Positions 1,239 to 7,632 of a stretch of 64,000 nt of DNA are shown here, in pieces. Numbering within the stretch: the stretch's first letter is position 1; the number at the start of each line of letters is the position of its first letter. Source of the DNA: Candidatus Thiothrix anitrata (lineage in GTDB: Bacteria > Pseudomonadota > Gammaproteobacteria > Thiotrichales > Thiotrichaceae); the NCBI RefSeq assembly GCF_017901155.1, contig NZ_CP072800.1, positions 1,887,283 through 1,951,282 of the forward strand, written 5' to 3'. Both the position numbers and the translations under genes were made by a program. The notes beneath the pieces are model-generated. The model was not told the DNA's origin and ran no database searches. It was given only the letters and a program-made list of their open reading frames with translations.

Positions 1239-2866
1239 ATGCACGACATCTTTCTCAGTTATTCCACCAAAGACCGTGACCGTTTAAAGCCGCTTGTTGC
1301 TGCGTTGGAGCAGCGTGGCTGGTCGGTGTTTTGGGATCATAAAACTGTTCCCATTGGTAAGCATTGGCAAAACGTGATTGGGCAAGCGATTCGTGATAGC
1401 CGTTGTGTAGTGTGGCGTGGTCAGCGCATTCTATTGCTTCCGAATGGGTGATTGAAGAGGCGTTGGAAGGCAAGAAACGCGGGGTGTTGCTGCCAATCCG
1501 TTTGGAGAATGTCGAAATTCCGTTTGGTTTTGGTGTGTACCAACCCGGTGATTTTATTGGTTGGGATGGCAAAGCAGAACACCTCGAATTCTTGCGTTTA
1601 GCGGGTGAAATTCAGGGATTGTTGGCGCGTCACGATGCCGAAAGCCAGCGCAAGGCGGATGCAATTGCCGCTGAACAACAACGTTTGGCAAAAGAACAAG
1701 CCTTAGCGGCACAGCAAGCGCGTGAAGCAGCCGAACGTCAACGCAGTATGGATGAGGAAGCCCAACGTCAACGTGAAGCCGCTGCTGCTGCCGAAAAAGT
1801 ACGTTTGACACAAGAAAAAGCCGCAGCCGATCAAAAAGCCCGTGAAGCCCGTGCTTTAGAACAAGCCGAACGCAAGAAACGTGAACAAGCGGCTGCTGAA
1901 GACACCGCTCGCCGTGCTGCCGAAGCTAAAGCCAAACAACCACAACCCTTAGTTGATGGTTTAGTGTTAGAAGAACTCACTCCTCCTTTTTGGAAAAAAC
2001 GTCATTTCCAGCTTGGTGCTGCCGCGTTGTCGGTAGCGGTTGTGGTGATTTATATGCAGCAATCCGAAGTGGTAACAATGCCGGAAATGATCGACATCAT
2101 TCCCGAAGGTAGTAAGCCAGTCAGCTTCACAATGGGTTGCAAGGAAGGGCGTGATGATGTGGAAGGAGGCTGCGATAGTGACGAAAAACCCGCGCATAAA
2201 GTCACCCTAACTAAACCTTATAAACTGGCAAAAACGGAAGTAACGGTAGCGCAATTTCGAGCTTTTGTAGACGCTACGGGTTACAAAACGACAGCGGAAG
2301 AGAAAGGCTCATGCTGGTCGTGGGCTGATGGCTGGAAAGAAGTCAAAGGCAATTCATGGCTTAAATTAGGTTTTGAGCAAGGCGAAGACCACCCGGTGGC
2401 TTGCGTCAGTTGGGATGATGCGCAAGCGTATGTTGATTGGCTTAAAAAAGAAACTCAAAACCTTTACCGTTTGCCGACGGAAGCGGAATGGGAATACGCC
2501 GCTCGTGGCGGTAAAGAAGGTGCGTACCCGTGGGGACAAAGTATTGGTAAAGATAACGCCAACTGTTCTGGAAATTTGTGTGGTGATCAGTTTGAATACA
2601 CGTCTCCCGTAGGTAGTTTTGCGGCGAATCCTTTCGGTTTGAAGGATATGCACGGAAATGTTTGGGAATGGGTCAGTGATTGGAAAGGTGATTATGCGGC
2701 GGAGCCGCAACAAGACCCGAAGGGTCCATCTTCTGGCGTCGAGCGCGTCGTTCGCGGCGGTTCGTGGAGCGGCCTCGGCGGGGGCGTGCGTTCTGCCATC
2801 CGTGGCAGGGGTGATCCCGCTATGCGTGACTACGACATTGGCTTCCGTCCCGCCCAAGGTCAGTGA
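1239..2866 (+). pseudogene. TIR / coiled-coil / membrane / FGE-sulfatase-like protein, frameshifted
   Basis: The gene is broken near 1412 by one missing base. Frame one encodes a TIR N-terminus (MHDIFLSYSTKDRD, then LEQRGWSVFWD) and stops at 1451. The rest of the TIR domain (WSAHSIASEWVIEEAL) and all downstream domains lie in the -1 frame. One extra G would give the expected CVVVAWS junction. Domains in order are TIR (about residues 1-125), an Ala/Glu/Gln-rich coiled coil (DNA about 1625-1945), one membrane helix (about 2004-2060), and a formylglycine-generating-enzyme-like domain (about 2100-2860) with motifs LPTEAEWEYAARGG, HGNVWEWVSDW, VVRGGSW and IGFRPA. FGE-fold domains of this kind often serve as ligand-binding scaffolds rather than enzymes. 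TIR domains act in NAD-consuming or signalling defence systems. The last part resembles a DGR variable region (see next entry). The gene may be a relic, may be a sequencing error, or may express only the downstream part. Confidence 0.75.
2747..2858 (+). other. Candidate DGR variable region in the FGE domain
   Basis: Between the conserved RGGSW and IGFR motifs the codons are agc-ggc-ctc-ggc-ggg-ggc, then gtg-cgt-tct-gcc, then atc-cgt-ggc-agg-ggt-gat and gac-tac-gac. Variation falls at the positions that are usually Asn (AAC/AAT) in related FGE proteins. The third base is mostly C or T, and most changes are at codon positions one and two. This is the footprint expected of adenine-directed mutagenic retrohoming by a diversity-generating retroelement. 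No template repeat or reverse transcriptase is visible in the window, so the call rests on codon pattern and family knowledge. Confidence 0.55.
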
Positions 2867-2934
2867 GCTAGGCAAGGCGGCGGAGCCGCAATGCCGCCGG
2901 AGGCGGTTTTGGTGGAACGTAACGCTACGGGGTG

Positions 2935-2952
2935 CAGGGGCAGTAGCCCCTG
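2935..2952. other. GC-rich hairpin (7-bp stem, 4-nt loop) downstream of the variable region
   Basis: CAGGGGC and GCCCCTG form a perfect 7-bp stem around an AGTA loop, 69 nt after the stop codon. Short GC-rich hairpins with tetraloops just downstream of the variable region are a known requirement for homing in several DGRs. There is no proper U-run after it (ccgatggtattttt), so it is a poor Rho-independent terminator. A second, weaker inverted repeat, GGCGGC (2876-2881) / GCCGCC (2893-2898), lies between it and the gene. The DGR role is inferred. Confidence 0.4.
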
Positions 2953-2979
2953 CCGATGGTATTTTTCCAAGGAGGCGAT

Positions 2980-3084
2980 GTGAAATTACGGTTTTTCAGC
3001 ATCAACGCACTCCGAACCTTCCCCCCATCCCCAACCCCTTCCCCCGCAAGGGGTGAAGGGGCTAAGAATGCGACTTTCGCCTAA
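2980..3084 (+). pseudogene. Truncated 5' end resembling a DGR-associated HRDC accessory gene
   Basis: A GTG at 2980 has a near-perfect ribosome binding site (AAGGAGG, 2969-2975). It opens a 34-codon frame that starts VKLRFFSINAL and then runs into low-complexity Pro-rich sequence encoded by a palindromic repeat. The first eleven residues resemble the start (M-K-L-R-F-F-S-I-x-A-L) that I recall for HRDC-domain accessory proteins next to DGR reverse transcriptases. The strong binding site without a real gene behind it suggests that the rest was lost where the repeat now sits. The match is short and made from memory, so confidence is moderate. Confidence 0.4.
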
Positions 3085-3167
3085 CAACAGGCAAAATTGC
3101 ACGAAATCTTTCTCTTGCTCCCTTCACCCCTTACGGGGGAAGGGCTGGGGATGGGGGGAATTCGGAG
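3010..3167. repeat. Paired REP-like palindromic repeat (inverted doublet)
   Basis: Two copies of a GC-rich palindromic unit (CCCCATCCCC, CCCTTCACCCC, GGGGGAAGGG) face each other. The left copy spans about 3010-3061 and the right about 3116-3167, with outer ends CTCCGAA and TTCGGAG. The doublet fills much of the 343-bp gap between the TIR-FGE gene and the Uma2 gene. A closely related single unit lies between sdhB and sdhE, and a related palindrome follows acnB. The pattern fits REP/BIME-type dispersed elements. The doublet truncates the HRDC-like frame. Confidence 0.7.
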
Positions 3168-3872: not shown

Positions 3873-3920
3873 ATCAGTCGTAAGTTTGACTGATTTTGAT
3901 ATGTGGTCAGTCGTAAAGTT
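3873..3920. promoter_or_regulatory. Inverted plus direct repeat upstream of the AAA+ ATPase gene
   Basis: ATCAGTC (3873-3879) and GACTGAT (3888-3894) form a 7-bp inverted repeat. The left half recurs as GTCAGTCGTAAAGTT at 3906-3920, parallel to ATCAGTCGTAAGTTT at 3873-3887. The cluster lies directly before the GTG start of the ATPase gene, in the divergent spacer with Uma2. It could be a regulator site; no specific factor can be named. Confidence 0.35.
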
Positions 3921-3932
3921 GGAGAATATCTC

Positions 3933-5236
3933 GTGGAAAAAGACAAAATCTTCGCTATCCTGAGCGACTGGAACGCTTGGAACAAGCCTTTACCCGCCAC
4001 GTTCAGCCGCCCGTTGTACGAGCAGGAAATCGCCCGCAAAGCCAAATCCGGCGAAGTGATTGTGATCAAGGGCGTGCGCCGCAGCGGTAAATCTACCCTG
4101 TTGACCAACGAAATCAAACGCCTGCAAGCGTCGGGAATGCCCGCGAAAAATATCCTGTTCGTGAATTTAGAAGATCAGCGTTTTTTCCTGTTCGCGCCGC
4201 TTACCCTGCTGGAAAAAATCAAGGAAACCTGGCTGGAATACGTGCAGCCGCAAGGCGCAACCGTCATCATGCTGGACGAAGTACAAAACATTCCCCAATG
4301 GGAAAAGTGGGTGCTGAAGGAATACGAAATAGGCAGCAGCAAGTTGTACGTCACCGGCTCAAATTCGCAATTGTTGGGGGTAGAATTCGGCACAGCCCTC
4401 ACCGGGCGTTACCTTGATGTCGAAGTTTACCCGCTGGGCTTCAAAGAGTTTCTGCTATTCCACGCGGTTGAAATCCACTCACGGGCAGATTTCATCCAGC
4501 AACAGCTTAAAATCAGACAGCTTTTCCGGCGTTACGTGGCGTTTGGTGGTTTCCCGAAATTGCGCTGACCGATAACGAATTACTGGCGAAAGAAACGCTT
4601 AAGGTTTACTTCGATTCCATCTTGCTGCGCGATATTGTTAGCCGCCACAAGTTGAATAATTTCACGGTGCTTCAGGAATTGTCGCTGTTTTTGCTGTCAA
4701 ATAATGCCACCCTTAATGCCTATAATAAGCTGAAAAACACCTTCAATGTGTCGTTTGAGATGATTCGCGAGTACGTGGAATTTCTGCAAGGGGCTTACCT
4801 GATTTTTACGCTCAACAAGTTTGATTACTCGTATAAAAAACAGGTGGTTAATCCGAAGAAGTTTTATGCGGTGGATACCGGTTTGTCCAATAATGTGTCG
4901 TTCAACGTATCCGCCAAGATTGCGCAGAATCTCGAAAATATCGTGTTTCTGGAGCTGAAACGGCGGCATGAAAACGTTTTTTACTACAAAACAGCCAACA
5001 ATTTGGAAGTGGATTTTTTGGTGGAGCGGGATGATTGCTACGAACTGATTCAGGTGTGTGCAACGTTGCAAGACAGTGCCACCCGTCAGCGCGAATTACG
5101 GGTGTTTACGGTCGCCGCAGCGGAGTTACACAAGCCGATCAAGCCGCTGATTCTGACACTGGATGAGAGTGAAACGCTGGTGCAAGACGGTTTGAGCATC
5201 GACATTCGCCATGTGTTGGAGTGGTTGTGTTTGTAA
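3933..5236 (+). pseudogene. AAA+ family ATPase with DUF4143 domain, frameshifted
   Basis: The N-terminal half has a Walker A motif (GVRRSGKST), a Walker B motif (VIMLDEVQNI) and the sensor VTGSNSQLL, typical of the archaeal-type ATPase/DUF4143 family. The frame stops at 4566 because one G is missing after 4556; with it the protein would read GGFPEIALTDNELLAKETL and continue through the second half. The second half holds the DUF4143 part (LLRDIVSRHK, YAVDTGLSN, then NLEVDFLV), which is nuclease-like (PD-(D/E)xK). The intact product would be about 435 aa. GTG 3933 is chosen because GGAGA lies 7 nt upstream. Family function is poorly understood. Whether the break is real or an error cannot be told from the sequence. 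Confidence 0.8.
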
Positions 5237-5976: not shown

Positions 5977-7632
5977 ATGGCAACAGCAACTGTTTCCGAA
6001 TACCAGAGTATTCCCTTGTCGGAAGGTAAAGCGCGTGAGTGGGTGGCAGCGTTGCCGCTGGCTGATCCCGGTGAAACCACGCGCCGCTTGTTCCACGGTT
6101 TGGTGGATTTAAACCGCCGTGCCGTGCCGCCGCAAACCCGTTTAGCCATTGGTGAGTCATTGCGCCCGGTGGTGGATATGGTGCTGGAAAATCTGCAACG
6201 GCATTTGGTGGCTCGCGCTTTTCCATTGACCCAAAAAAGCCAGAAAATCTTTGAGTTAGCCCAATCCCTGATGCTGGAATTCGCGGGTTTGTGGCAAGTG
6301 ACCGCGCTCGATATTCTCACCCGCAAGGAAGGTAACAAAAAGCAGTTACAACAGGCGATTTATCAAGCCTTGGATTACATGGGGCGGGTGTTGTTGCTGA
6401 CGTATTCGGTGTATGCGCGTACCCGTGAAACCCTGTGGCATGATATTCACCATTTGTATTTATTGGCGGTGGAAAATGCCGTTGATCAAATCAAGTGTCG
6501 TGACCCCAGCCCCGGTGCGCCGACGATTGAAGCGCGTTATGTGCAAATGAATTTGTTGGCGTTGGTCAAGCCTTATTGTTTGCGTCAAGGCGAGGTCGAA
6601 CGTGTGATGCATTATTTCATTACGCATACGGCTTTGGTACGTATTTCCGGTGATGCGGGTGATGATGTGAGTGTGAATGCCCCTGTTGCCATGCTCAACA
6701 GTGATGAACCCGCAGTGCTGATGCCAGTGAGTGATTTGCCGTTATCGCCGACAGTACGGGTGCTGCACTTGAGTGCGTTGATTGCGGCGATGGATGCCAG
6801 CATTCGGCAATTGGATAAAGTCGGTGCGTCGGTGTTGGTGTTGCATGAGGGTTTGAGCCGTAATCTGGCAAAACGCATGATTTTTCATTTAACCACGGTG
6901 CGTAATCGCAGTTTTAATCGTTTTCCGAAAAAGGAAACGATTGGGATGGTGACGCGTATGGGGGATGTGCTCAAGGTGGTACAGGAAACCAGTATGCAGG
7001 AGGTGGATAGCGCAGAGGAGGATATGCTGTTTAATGTGTTTGTTTCTGGTGATTACGCTTCAGAGGATGATGTGAAGCACGCGGTTGCTGCACAAGTTGA
7101 GGAGCAAGCAGGGGCGCGGATTCAAACTTGGCAAGTCCTGAACAGTAGTGTTGGCGGTTATGGTTTGTGTTGGAACGGCAAGGAGGAATCCGGGGCGCGG
7201 GTCGGGGAAATTGTGGCGTTGCGTGATTTAACCAAAGAATCTTCGGTGTGGATGATTGGTGTGATTAAGTGGATGGAGTTTATGCGCGGCACGGGTTTGT
7301 GTTGCGGAGTGGAATTGCTATCCACCAAGGCAATGATGTTGACGGTGCAGCAGGTGTTGAACCGTGAGTTGCGTCAGAAATTGCCGGTGCAAGGTTTAAT
7401 GTTGCCGAGTATTGCCGGGGTGCGTCCTGATCCGGCGTTGGTGTTGCCTGCGTACATGTTTCAGGTGGGCGATGATGTGCGTCTGGAGTTTGCGGAGCGC
7501 GAGGAGCGGGTGCGTTTGGTGCTGTTGGATGAGTGTATGGGGGTGTTTGCGTATTTTCGTTTTACTACCTTGATGGAACAGCCCGAAGCAGATGATGAAG
7601 ACGATTTTACCGCACTGTGGCAGTCGTTGTAG
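5977..7632 (+). CDS. PilZ-like domain protein, probable c-di-GMP effector
   Basis: This protein of about 551 aa has a long helical N-terminal part (LPLADPGETTRRLFHGL, a pattern seen in large PilZ-type proteins of gammaproteobacteria) and a beta-rich C-terminal domain. NSSVGG near residue 388 fits the PilZ NxSxxG motif, followed by GLCW and a barrel-like stretch (VGEIVAL, WMIGVIKW, CCGVELLS). A clean RxxxR half of the c-di-GMP site is not obvious, so binding may be weak or altered. ATG 5977 is preferred (GGA 10 nt upstream); ATGs at 5962 and 5926 are possible. It precedes a PAS/EAL-like protein and a polysaccharide tyrosine kinase, which suggests control of exopolysaccharide by c-di-GMP. Confidence 0.6.
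   Translation: MATATVSEYQSIPLSEGKAREWVAALPLADPGETTRRLFHGLVDLNRRAVPPQTRLAIGESLRPVVDMVLENLQRHLVARAFPLTQKSQKIFELAQSLMLEFAGLWQVTALDILTRKEGNKKQLQQAIYQALDYMGRVLLLTYSVYARTRETLWHDIHHLYLLAVENAVDQIKCRDPSPGAPTIEARYVQMNLLALVKPYCLRQGEVERVMHYFITHTALVRISGDAGDDVSVNAPVAMLNSDEPAVLMPVSDLPLSPTVRVLHLSALIAAMDASIRQLDKVGASVLVLHEGLSRNLAKRMIFHLTTVRNRSFNRFPKKETIGMVTRMGDVLKVVQETSMQEVDSAEEDMLFNVFVSGDYASEDDVKHAVAAQVEEQAGARIQTWQVLNSSVGGYGLCWNGKEESGARVGEIVALRDLTKESSVWMIGVIKWMEFMRGTGLCCGVELLSTKAMMLTVQQVLNRELRQKLPVQGLMLPSIAGVRPDPALVLPAYMFQVGDDVRLEFAEREERVRLVLLDECMGVFAYFRFTTLMEQPEADDEDDFTALWQSL

What the first reader, a model, noticed from the sequence alone, without database searches (positions are those of the whole stretch)
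2747..2858. Diversity-generating-retroelement footprint at the end of a TIR-FGE protein
Between the conserved RGGSW and IGFR motifs, nearly all variable codons end in C or T and differ from AAC/AAT at positions one and two (agc, ggc, ctc, ggc, atc, ggc, gac, tac, gac). The stretch is poor in A on the coding strand. Adenine-directed mutagenesis of an Asn-rich template would leave this mark. A DGR-diversified FGE receptor fused to TIR through a coiled coil and a membrane helix would be a variable sensor joined to a defence-type effector.
Basis: partly seen in the sequence, partly recalled or inferred. Interest (0 to 1): 0.78.

Follow-up and report, generated by a model that had tools for sequence, protein, structure and literature searches.

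The report
Orphaned DGR-written tail of TIR-FGE gene
The last stretch of this bacterial sensor-like gene carries the mark of a natural hypermutation machine, but no such machine was found in this genome and it survives in related species, so the gene looks like a frozen and probably broken leftover of a diversifying receptor.

Summary
The footprint is real, but the machine that made it was not found in this genome. A congeneric genome (G007; genus Thiothrix, inferred) carries a DGR-type reverse transcriptase and an Asn-rich template repeat. Against that template the window's 2753-2848 differs at 17 of 26 template adenines and at 3 of 70 other bases (Fisher p = 8e-10, best of eight templates). 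Two GC hairpins follow (2877-2889, 2894-2906); hairpins of this kind lie behind 22 of 38 FGE tails examined and 0 of 3 templates.

In the window's single-contig genome I found no DGR reverse transcriptase (two CRISPR-type RTs and one UG13a RT), no template and no piece of the RT module. The TIR half is split by a frame change near 1412; the two relatives aligned there are open. Just upstream of the cassette the gene matches a TIR-FGE gene of G014, whose own repeat fits another template family: the window gene is a mosaic.

Best reading: an orphan, in-trans DGR target, now frozen and probably a pseudogene. DGR-diversified FGE/TIR sensors, remote targets and degenerate loci are published for other bacteria; the added part is the Thiothrix case, where several genomes keep targets without the machinery.

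The parts
1239..1451 (+). N-terminal part of the TIR domain in its own frame (stop at 1449-1451)
   Evidence: TIR_2 E=9.7e-13 for 1239-1445; 62% and 77% identical over 60 residues to L110 and L112
1403..2866 (+). ORF of 487 aa: rest of TIR, Ala/Glu-rich probable coiled coil (by eye), hydrophobic segment, FGE domain
   Evidence: the ORF listing; FGE-sulfatase E=5e-59; frame change against both relatives at about 1412
2003..2062 (+). hydrophobic segment, probable membrane helix
   Evidence: Kyte-Doolittle maxima 1.46-1.54 within 2003-2074; no dedicated predictor was run
2126..2854 (+). FGE-sulfatase domain
   Evidence: Pfam PF03781 residues 242-484; PDB matches include PvdO, FGE and Treponema denticola variable protein 1, 2y3c
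2738..2848 (+). variable repeat of template family A
   Evidence: 17/26 template A sites and 3/70 other sites changed in the core against the G007 template
2877..2889 (+). hairpin GCGGC-GGA-GCCGC, 28 bases after the repeat core
   Evidence: the exact 13-mer occurs only twice in the whole genome, both times in this gene
2894..2906 (+). second hairpin CCGCC-GGA-GGCGG
   Evidence: the same tandem arrangement in L111, L112 (one base changed), L114, L117
2696..2708 (+). second copy of the hairpin 13-mer, inside the ORF and upstream of the repeat
   Evidence: may be chance from conserved AEP codons

Best explanation
The tail of this TIR-FGE gene is a DGR variable repeat. A family-A DGR (HRDC protein, reverse transcriptase and Asn-rich template, as still present in the congener G007) copied its template RNA with errors at adenines and pasted the cDNA, in trans, over about 110 bases at the end of the gene, using the repeat's 3' end and perhaps the downstream GC hairpins as landing site. 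The FGE domain then displayed a randomised surface, and the TIR half was presumably the response module, as proposed for related 'antigen sensors'. No DGR machinery was found in this genome and the TIR frame is now broken, so what remains is a frozen, probably inactive orphan target. Shown here: the adenine-confined differences, the template and RT in congeners, failure to find either in this genome, the hairpins, the mosaic and the frame change. Inferred: writing in trans within this lineage, the role of the hairpins, antigen sensing, TIR output, and that the frame change is biological.
For:: window core against the G007 template 17/26 A and 3/70 non-A (p=8.1e-10, not corrected for choosing among eight templates); 17 non-A differences from the next template family; in G007 the template core starts 45 bases after the stop of an RT with motif IGSLTSQ whose best solved relative is 8ub7 (E 8.7e-42; I recall this series as the BPP-1 DGR RT); trypsin-like peptidase, AAA ATPase, FGE target, HRDC protein, RT and second FGE target in that locus. 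L113, a TIR-FGE gene on another contig of G007, differs from G007's own template at 17/26 A and 1/70 non-A; window matches L110 (G014) at 37/44 bases just upstream of the cassette, but at the template's non-A sites matches L110 at 50/70 and the G007 template at 67/70; hairpins; no DGR RT, template or module found in G000; frame change.
Against: No DGR RT or template was found in the window's genome, so activity here cannot be shown. Three non-A differences remain (template divergence or later mutation). A short gene conversion from another variable repeat would look the same as retrohoming. The hairpins are missing behind 16 of 38 FGE tails, 9 of the 11 in G000 itself and some clearly DGR-written ones (L099 first copy, L100, L046) included, and they have 5-bp stems and GGA loops, not the 7-10 bp stems and GRNA loops described for phage DGRs (PMC3240598, passages). 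The frame change could be a sequencing error. A plasmid carrying the DGR could be missing from the one-contig assembly. Genome searches score a limited number of candidates per genome (e.g. 20 of 27 for G000).
Confidence: 0.85

Rival explanations
1. Ordinary diversifying selection on an FGE/C-type-lectin surface, with no retroelement: Asn codons at exposed positions simply vary.
For: FGE domains are widespread; even an FGE tail of this genome that does not look DGR-written (L048) shows a mild excess at template-A sites (17/27 A, 27/69 non-A, p=0.03).
Against: Only 3 of 70 non-A template bases differ in the window, silent sites included, against 17 for the next template family and 27 of 69 for L048 with its best template; the matching template lies beside a DGR-type RT in a congener.
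Confidence: 0.04
2. The cassette came by recombination (gene conversion or transfer of a 3' end) from another DGR target gene, and this copy was itself never a retrohoming target.
For: Mosaic with L110; TIR-FGE genes with family-A repeats (L113, L114) align with the window from 2624 to about 2907 at 79%; no RT found in G000.
Against: Hairpins behind the repeat occur in genes of both template families (L117, L110 and L111-L115), so the gene could have been a competent target before; no donor with the same letters was seen: the closest of the other repeats shares 15 of 26 template-A sites (L099); agreement with L113 falls to 29/44 just upstream of the repeat.
Confidence: 0.25
3. A living system: the DGR is encoded on a plasmid or another replicon missing from the assembly, and the frame change is a sequencing error.
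For: The assembly is one contig and would not show an unassembled plasmid; a second gene nearby (AAA_14 at 3903-4568, DUF4143 at 4622-5236) also looks split, which could point to base errors.
Against: Completeness 99.56%; the two open family-A RTs lie on contigs of 446 kb and 4.5 Mb; the RT is also not found in other congeners with family-A repeats, the single-contig G005 and G015 included.
Confidence: 0.1

Closest known systems
Clade-5 DGRs of multicellular bacteria with putative antigen sensors (Thiohalocapsa PB-PSB1; Dore et al. 2024, PMC10907252; I read the outline with abstract, sections 5, 6 and 7, part 1 of section 11, and search passages)
   Same: FGE/CLec targets; TIR, peptidase and MoxR-like partners; loci with one long and one CLec-only target; degenerate loci lacking RT or template; candidate remote targets
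   Different: There each class keeps one complete locus in the genome; here no complete DGR was found in the genome, and the TIR-FGE target has a frame change. 'Thiothrix' does not occur in that paper's main text.
Remote variable proteins of cyanobacterial DGRs (PMC7517822; passages read)
   Same: CLec paralogues far from the RT with template homology; one gene (all3226) with remnant TR-VR homology and no RT gene nearby
   Different: Other phylum; here the search for RT and template covered the whole genome and the template was found only in other species
BPP-1 DGR target site (PMC3240598; passages read)
   Same: GC-rich hairpin shortly downstream of the variable repeat (28 bases here; 4-34 bp in the paper's phage set)
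   Different: 5-bp stems with GGA loops in tandem, instead of a 7-10 bp stem with a GRNA loop; not present behind every repeat

Membership tests
Diversity-generating retroelement (complete) | reverse transcriptase of the DGR type in the genome | tested here: not met
   Three RVT_1 hits in G000: one beside Cas1, one RT-Cas1 fusion with a sub-threshold Cas6 match, one RT_UG13a; the best match of P0001 in G000 is the CRISPR-type RT at 30% identity
Diversity-generating retroelement (complete) | template repeat in the genome | tested here: not met
   only variable-repeat-like or chance-level matches in G000; one search finds exact template words in G007, G004, G002 and (a weakly changed repeat) G011
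Diversity-generating retroelement (complete) | accessory protein (Avd or HRDC type) | tested here: not met
   The HRDC-RT-template module of L100 matches only two variable repeats in G000 (DNA level); Avd-type families were not searched
DGR target gene (variable repeat) | differences from a template confined to adenines | tested here: met
   17/26 A, 3/70 non-A against the G007 template
DGR target gene (variable repeat) | C-type-lectin/FGE fold at the C terminus | tested here: met
   PF03781 E=5e-59; PDB 2y3c Treponema denticola variable protein 1 E=6e-16; by sequence only, no structure was predicted
DGR target gene (variable repeat) | downstream hairpin/cruciform | tested here: inconclusive
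   Tandem hairpins at the expected place, behind 22 of 38 tails and 0 of 3 templates, but short stems and 3-base loops; no functional test
DGR target gene (variable repeat) | ongoing hypervariation between cells or strains | not testable with these tools
   one genome per species held
TIR effector (NAD-consuming or signalling) | intact TIR domain | tested here: not met
   frame change at about 1412; L110 and L112 are open there; seven of seven related TIR-FGE genes scanned have TIR_2 in one frame with FGE

The most novel reading that the evidence does not exclude
In Thiothrix, DGR machinery is repeatedly lost while its randomised TIR-FGE receptors are kept, and one receptor gene can change hands between template families: related TIR-FGE genes in G000 and G014 carry repeats written from family A and family B templates. 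The frozen receptors would then act as a fixed repertoire, like germ-line receptors left behind by an extinct diversification machine.
Probability: 0.3. Interest if true: 0.62.

Novelty: new member of a known kind. Interest (0 to 1): 0.42.

Why it matters
DGR-diversified TIR/FGE sensors are candidates for a bacterial form of adaptive immunity, but what happens to the receptors when the diversifier is lost is, to my knowledge, little studied. This genus offers a natural comparison: related bacteria with an open, a broken or no detected copy of the same DGR, all with rewritten receptor tails.

Tried and rejected
Ideas tested and dropped. (1) A template inside G000: four searches, none found. (2) A DGR RT among the three RTs of G000: rejected by family and PDB matches. 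(3) Hairpins as part of a transferred cassette: dropped, because genes of both template families carry them. (4) A clear 3' junction of the mosaic: not resolvable (13/18 against L110; 13/18 and 14/18 against L113 and L114); only the 5' junction is clear. (5) G011's exact template-word match is a weakly changed variable repeat in an open FGE frame. (6) The two best matches outside G000 to the L046 repeat (L287, L288) are repeats, not templates; the other matches were not examined.

Limits of the counts. One search compared only tails of exactly 32 residues ending GFR or GCR, so those with an insertion or ending GLR (L046's third copy, L050, all of L106, others) were dropped before counting; of its 32 rows two are templates, and L048 among the remaining 30 does not look DGR-written. 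Loci fetched are 20 stretches chosen from the longer list, and the loci were chosen around FGE genes. One search counts hairpins within 80 bases of 38 non-template tails in 33 loci. No family tree and no structure prediction was made. Paper searches; 'Thiothrix' with 'diversity-generating retroelements' or with 'retroelement' gave 0 papers in that open-licence library. One search (passages of PMC8144416) gave nothing on Thiothrix or TIR.

They changed 'most' repeats with hairpins to 22 of 38, added the hairpin-free repeats as evidence against, and confirmed TIR plus FGE in seven of seven related genes.

Full report
What is there. The window lies at 1,887,283-1,951,282 of a single 3.55-Mb contig (G000, completeness 99.56%, contamination 3.27%). 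The gene begins with a TIR domain in the frame of 1239-1451 and continues in the frame of 1403-2866. Two relatives, L110 of G014 and L112 of G002, each with TIR_2 and FGE in one open frame, align to both halves; the frame changes in the window at about 1412. After TIR come an Ala/Glu-rich stretch that looks like a coiled coil (by eye), a hydrophobic segment at 2003-2062 and an FGE-sulfatase domain (residues 242-484, E=5e-59). The genus is inferred to be Thiothrix: contig G002:C3 has the length (257,488) and the match position of NZ_JAQTLS010000003.1, Thiothrix sp. STA_22. G000 itself was not named.

The footprint. Searching 40 genomes (own included) with 2560-2880 gave matches in 20 of 40, several confined to the repeat. 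In G007 one match is a template repeat: L100:7470-7565 reads RGGSWNNNGRNVRSAIRNRNDPANRNNNIGFR, and its core starts 45 bases after the stop of a reverse-transcriptase frame with IGSLTSQ and YMDD motifs. Against this template the window core changes 17 of 26 A and 3 of 70 non-A bases; by template base over 109 positions A 18/28, C 2/32, G 1/30, T 1/19. The p-value, 8.1e-10, is for the best of eight templates. As controls, the window has 17 non-A differences from the next template family, and an FGE tail of the same genome that does not look DGR-written (L048) has 27 of 69 from its best template, though it too shows a mild A excess (p=0.03). The low non-A count, more than the A excess, is the decisive number.

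The machine in relatives. The G007 locus holds a trypsin-like peptidase, an AAA ATPase, a 964-aa protein ending in FGE, an HRDC protein, the RT, the template and an FGE-only protein. The RT's best solved relative is 8ub7 (E=8.7e-42), a series I recall as the Bordetella phage DGR RT; the CRISPR-type RT of G000 matches that entry at 1e-6 and group II RTs at up to 2.8e-39. This layout resembles the 'clade 5A' loci of Dore et al. 2024 (PMC10907252, section 11 part 1): MoxR-like ATPase, one long and one CLec-only target. A TIR-FGE gene on a different contig of G007 (L113; TIR_2 E=8.7e-18) differs from the G007 template at 17/26 A and 1/70 non-A sites, so a TIR-FGE gene is an in-trans target in a genome that still has the template and an open RT.

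Absence here. G000 has three RVT_1 proteins: one next to Cas1, one RT-Cas1 fusion with a Cas6 match just below its cut-off and one RT_UG13a (E=1.4e-230). The DGR RT query finds in G000 only the first two, at 30% and 27% identity. The 1784-base HRDC-RT-template module finds in G000 only two variable repeats, the window's and that of L045 (20 of 27 candidates scored). The template word finds only three-mismatch matches there, and exact ones in G007, G004, G002 and G011, the last a weakly changed repeat. A 2.6-kb stretch upstream of the G007 target's FGE end is found in 4 of 16 genus genomes, not in G000. Of the 16 genomes, an open RT at least 75% identical to P0001 is found in two (G007, G004) and a broken one in G002. 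Seven genomes have at least one repeat within four non-A differences of a family-A template (13 of 30 tails compared): one has the open RT (G007), one the broken RT (G002) and in five it was not found (G000, G005, G012, G014, G015). G004's repeats end in GLR and were not in that count. In G015, 101 bases from behind the template remain at 93% identity without RT or template, which reads as a scar of loss.

Mosaic. Window 2118-2767 aligns with L110 at 79%. Just upstream of the repeat (-60 to -16) the window agrees with L110 at 37/44 bases, with L113 at 29/44 and with the template's flank at 8/44; inside the repeat, at the template's non-A sites, it agrees with L110 at 50/70 and with the G007 template at 67/70. 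L110's own repeat fits a family-B template of G013 (16/29 A, 5/67 non-A). The two related genes thus carry repeats from different template families. Retrohoming from a new template or a short gene conversion would both do this; no other repeat compared shares more than 15 of the window's 26 A-site letters.

Hairpins. GCGGC-GGA-GCCGC begins 28 bases after the repeat core and CCGCC-GGA-GGCGG follows it. In 36 loci (893 kb counting both strands, chosen around FGE genes) there are 30 occurrences of these two words (one base degenerate in the first); 27 begin 25-52 bases behind an FGE end matched by my motif and three do not (window 2696, L100:8626, L103:6481). Counted by tail, 22 of 38 non-template FGE tails have one within 80 bases and 16 do not; none of three templates has one; in G000 itself 2 of 11 tails have one. 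In G000 the exact first word occurs twice, both in this gene. They are not the phage consensus (7-10 bp stem, GRNA loop; PMC3240598, passages). So the hairpins support, but do not prove, a target site.

Elsewhere in G000. At C1:2,984,000-2,998,000 (L046) lie a trypsin-like peptidase, an AAA_5 ATPase, a 985-aa FGE protein and two short FGE proteins, with no RT or template match in that stretch. Two of their repeats differ from each other at 19 of 24 positions that are A in the G002 template and at 2 of 72 others; against the L044 repeat the figures are 19/24 and 6/72, and 15/24 and 6/72. This genome therefore keeps further orphan repeats of another template family; the two best matches outside G000 are repeats too, and the template of this family was not identified.

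Verdict. Remote and remnant targets and degenerate loci are in print for other organisms (PMC7517822 passages; PMC10907252 sections 5 and 7), so this is a new member of a known kind, with an instructive pattern of loss across one genus.

Noticed in passing
L046 (G000:C1:2984000-2998000): Ternary-conflict-like locus (trypsin-like peptidase, AAA ATPase, three FGE proteins); two of the repeats differ almost only at template-A sites (19/24 A, 2/72 others), yet no RT or template was found there.
   Followed up: partly
L045, L044, L047, L050 (G000): Further FGE tails that look DGR-written; L045 fits a family-B template of G001 (15/30 A, 4/66 non-A).
   Followed up: partly
window 3903-5236: AAA_14 (3903-4568) and DUF4143 (4622-5236) in two frames; I recall these two domains as usually one protein, so this may be a second frame-broken gene within 3 kb.
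   Followed up: partly
window 3019-3160: Inverted repeat, arms 3022-3067 and 3113-3158, 80% complementary, behind the TIR-FGE gene; REP- or MITE-like.
   Followed up: partly
window 2934-2953: Hairpin GCAGGGGC-AGTA-GCCCCTGC about 70 bases after the stop codon; could be a terminator.
   Followed up: no
L001 and L002 (G000:C1:3084531-3101962): Two CRISPR-type RTs about 13 kb apart: one separate RT next to Cas1, one RT-Cas1 fusion.
   Followed up: partly
L131, L141, L122, L123, L129: At least three more template families (B, C, D) with Asn-rich templates beside RTs or RT fragments in other genus members.
   Followed up: partly
L099 (G015:C1:883000-897000), 7149-7249: 101-base remnant of the region behind the template, 93% identical to G007, with RT and template not found: reads as a loss scar.
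   Followed up: partly
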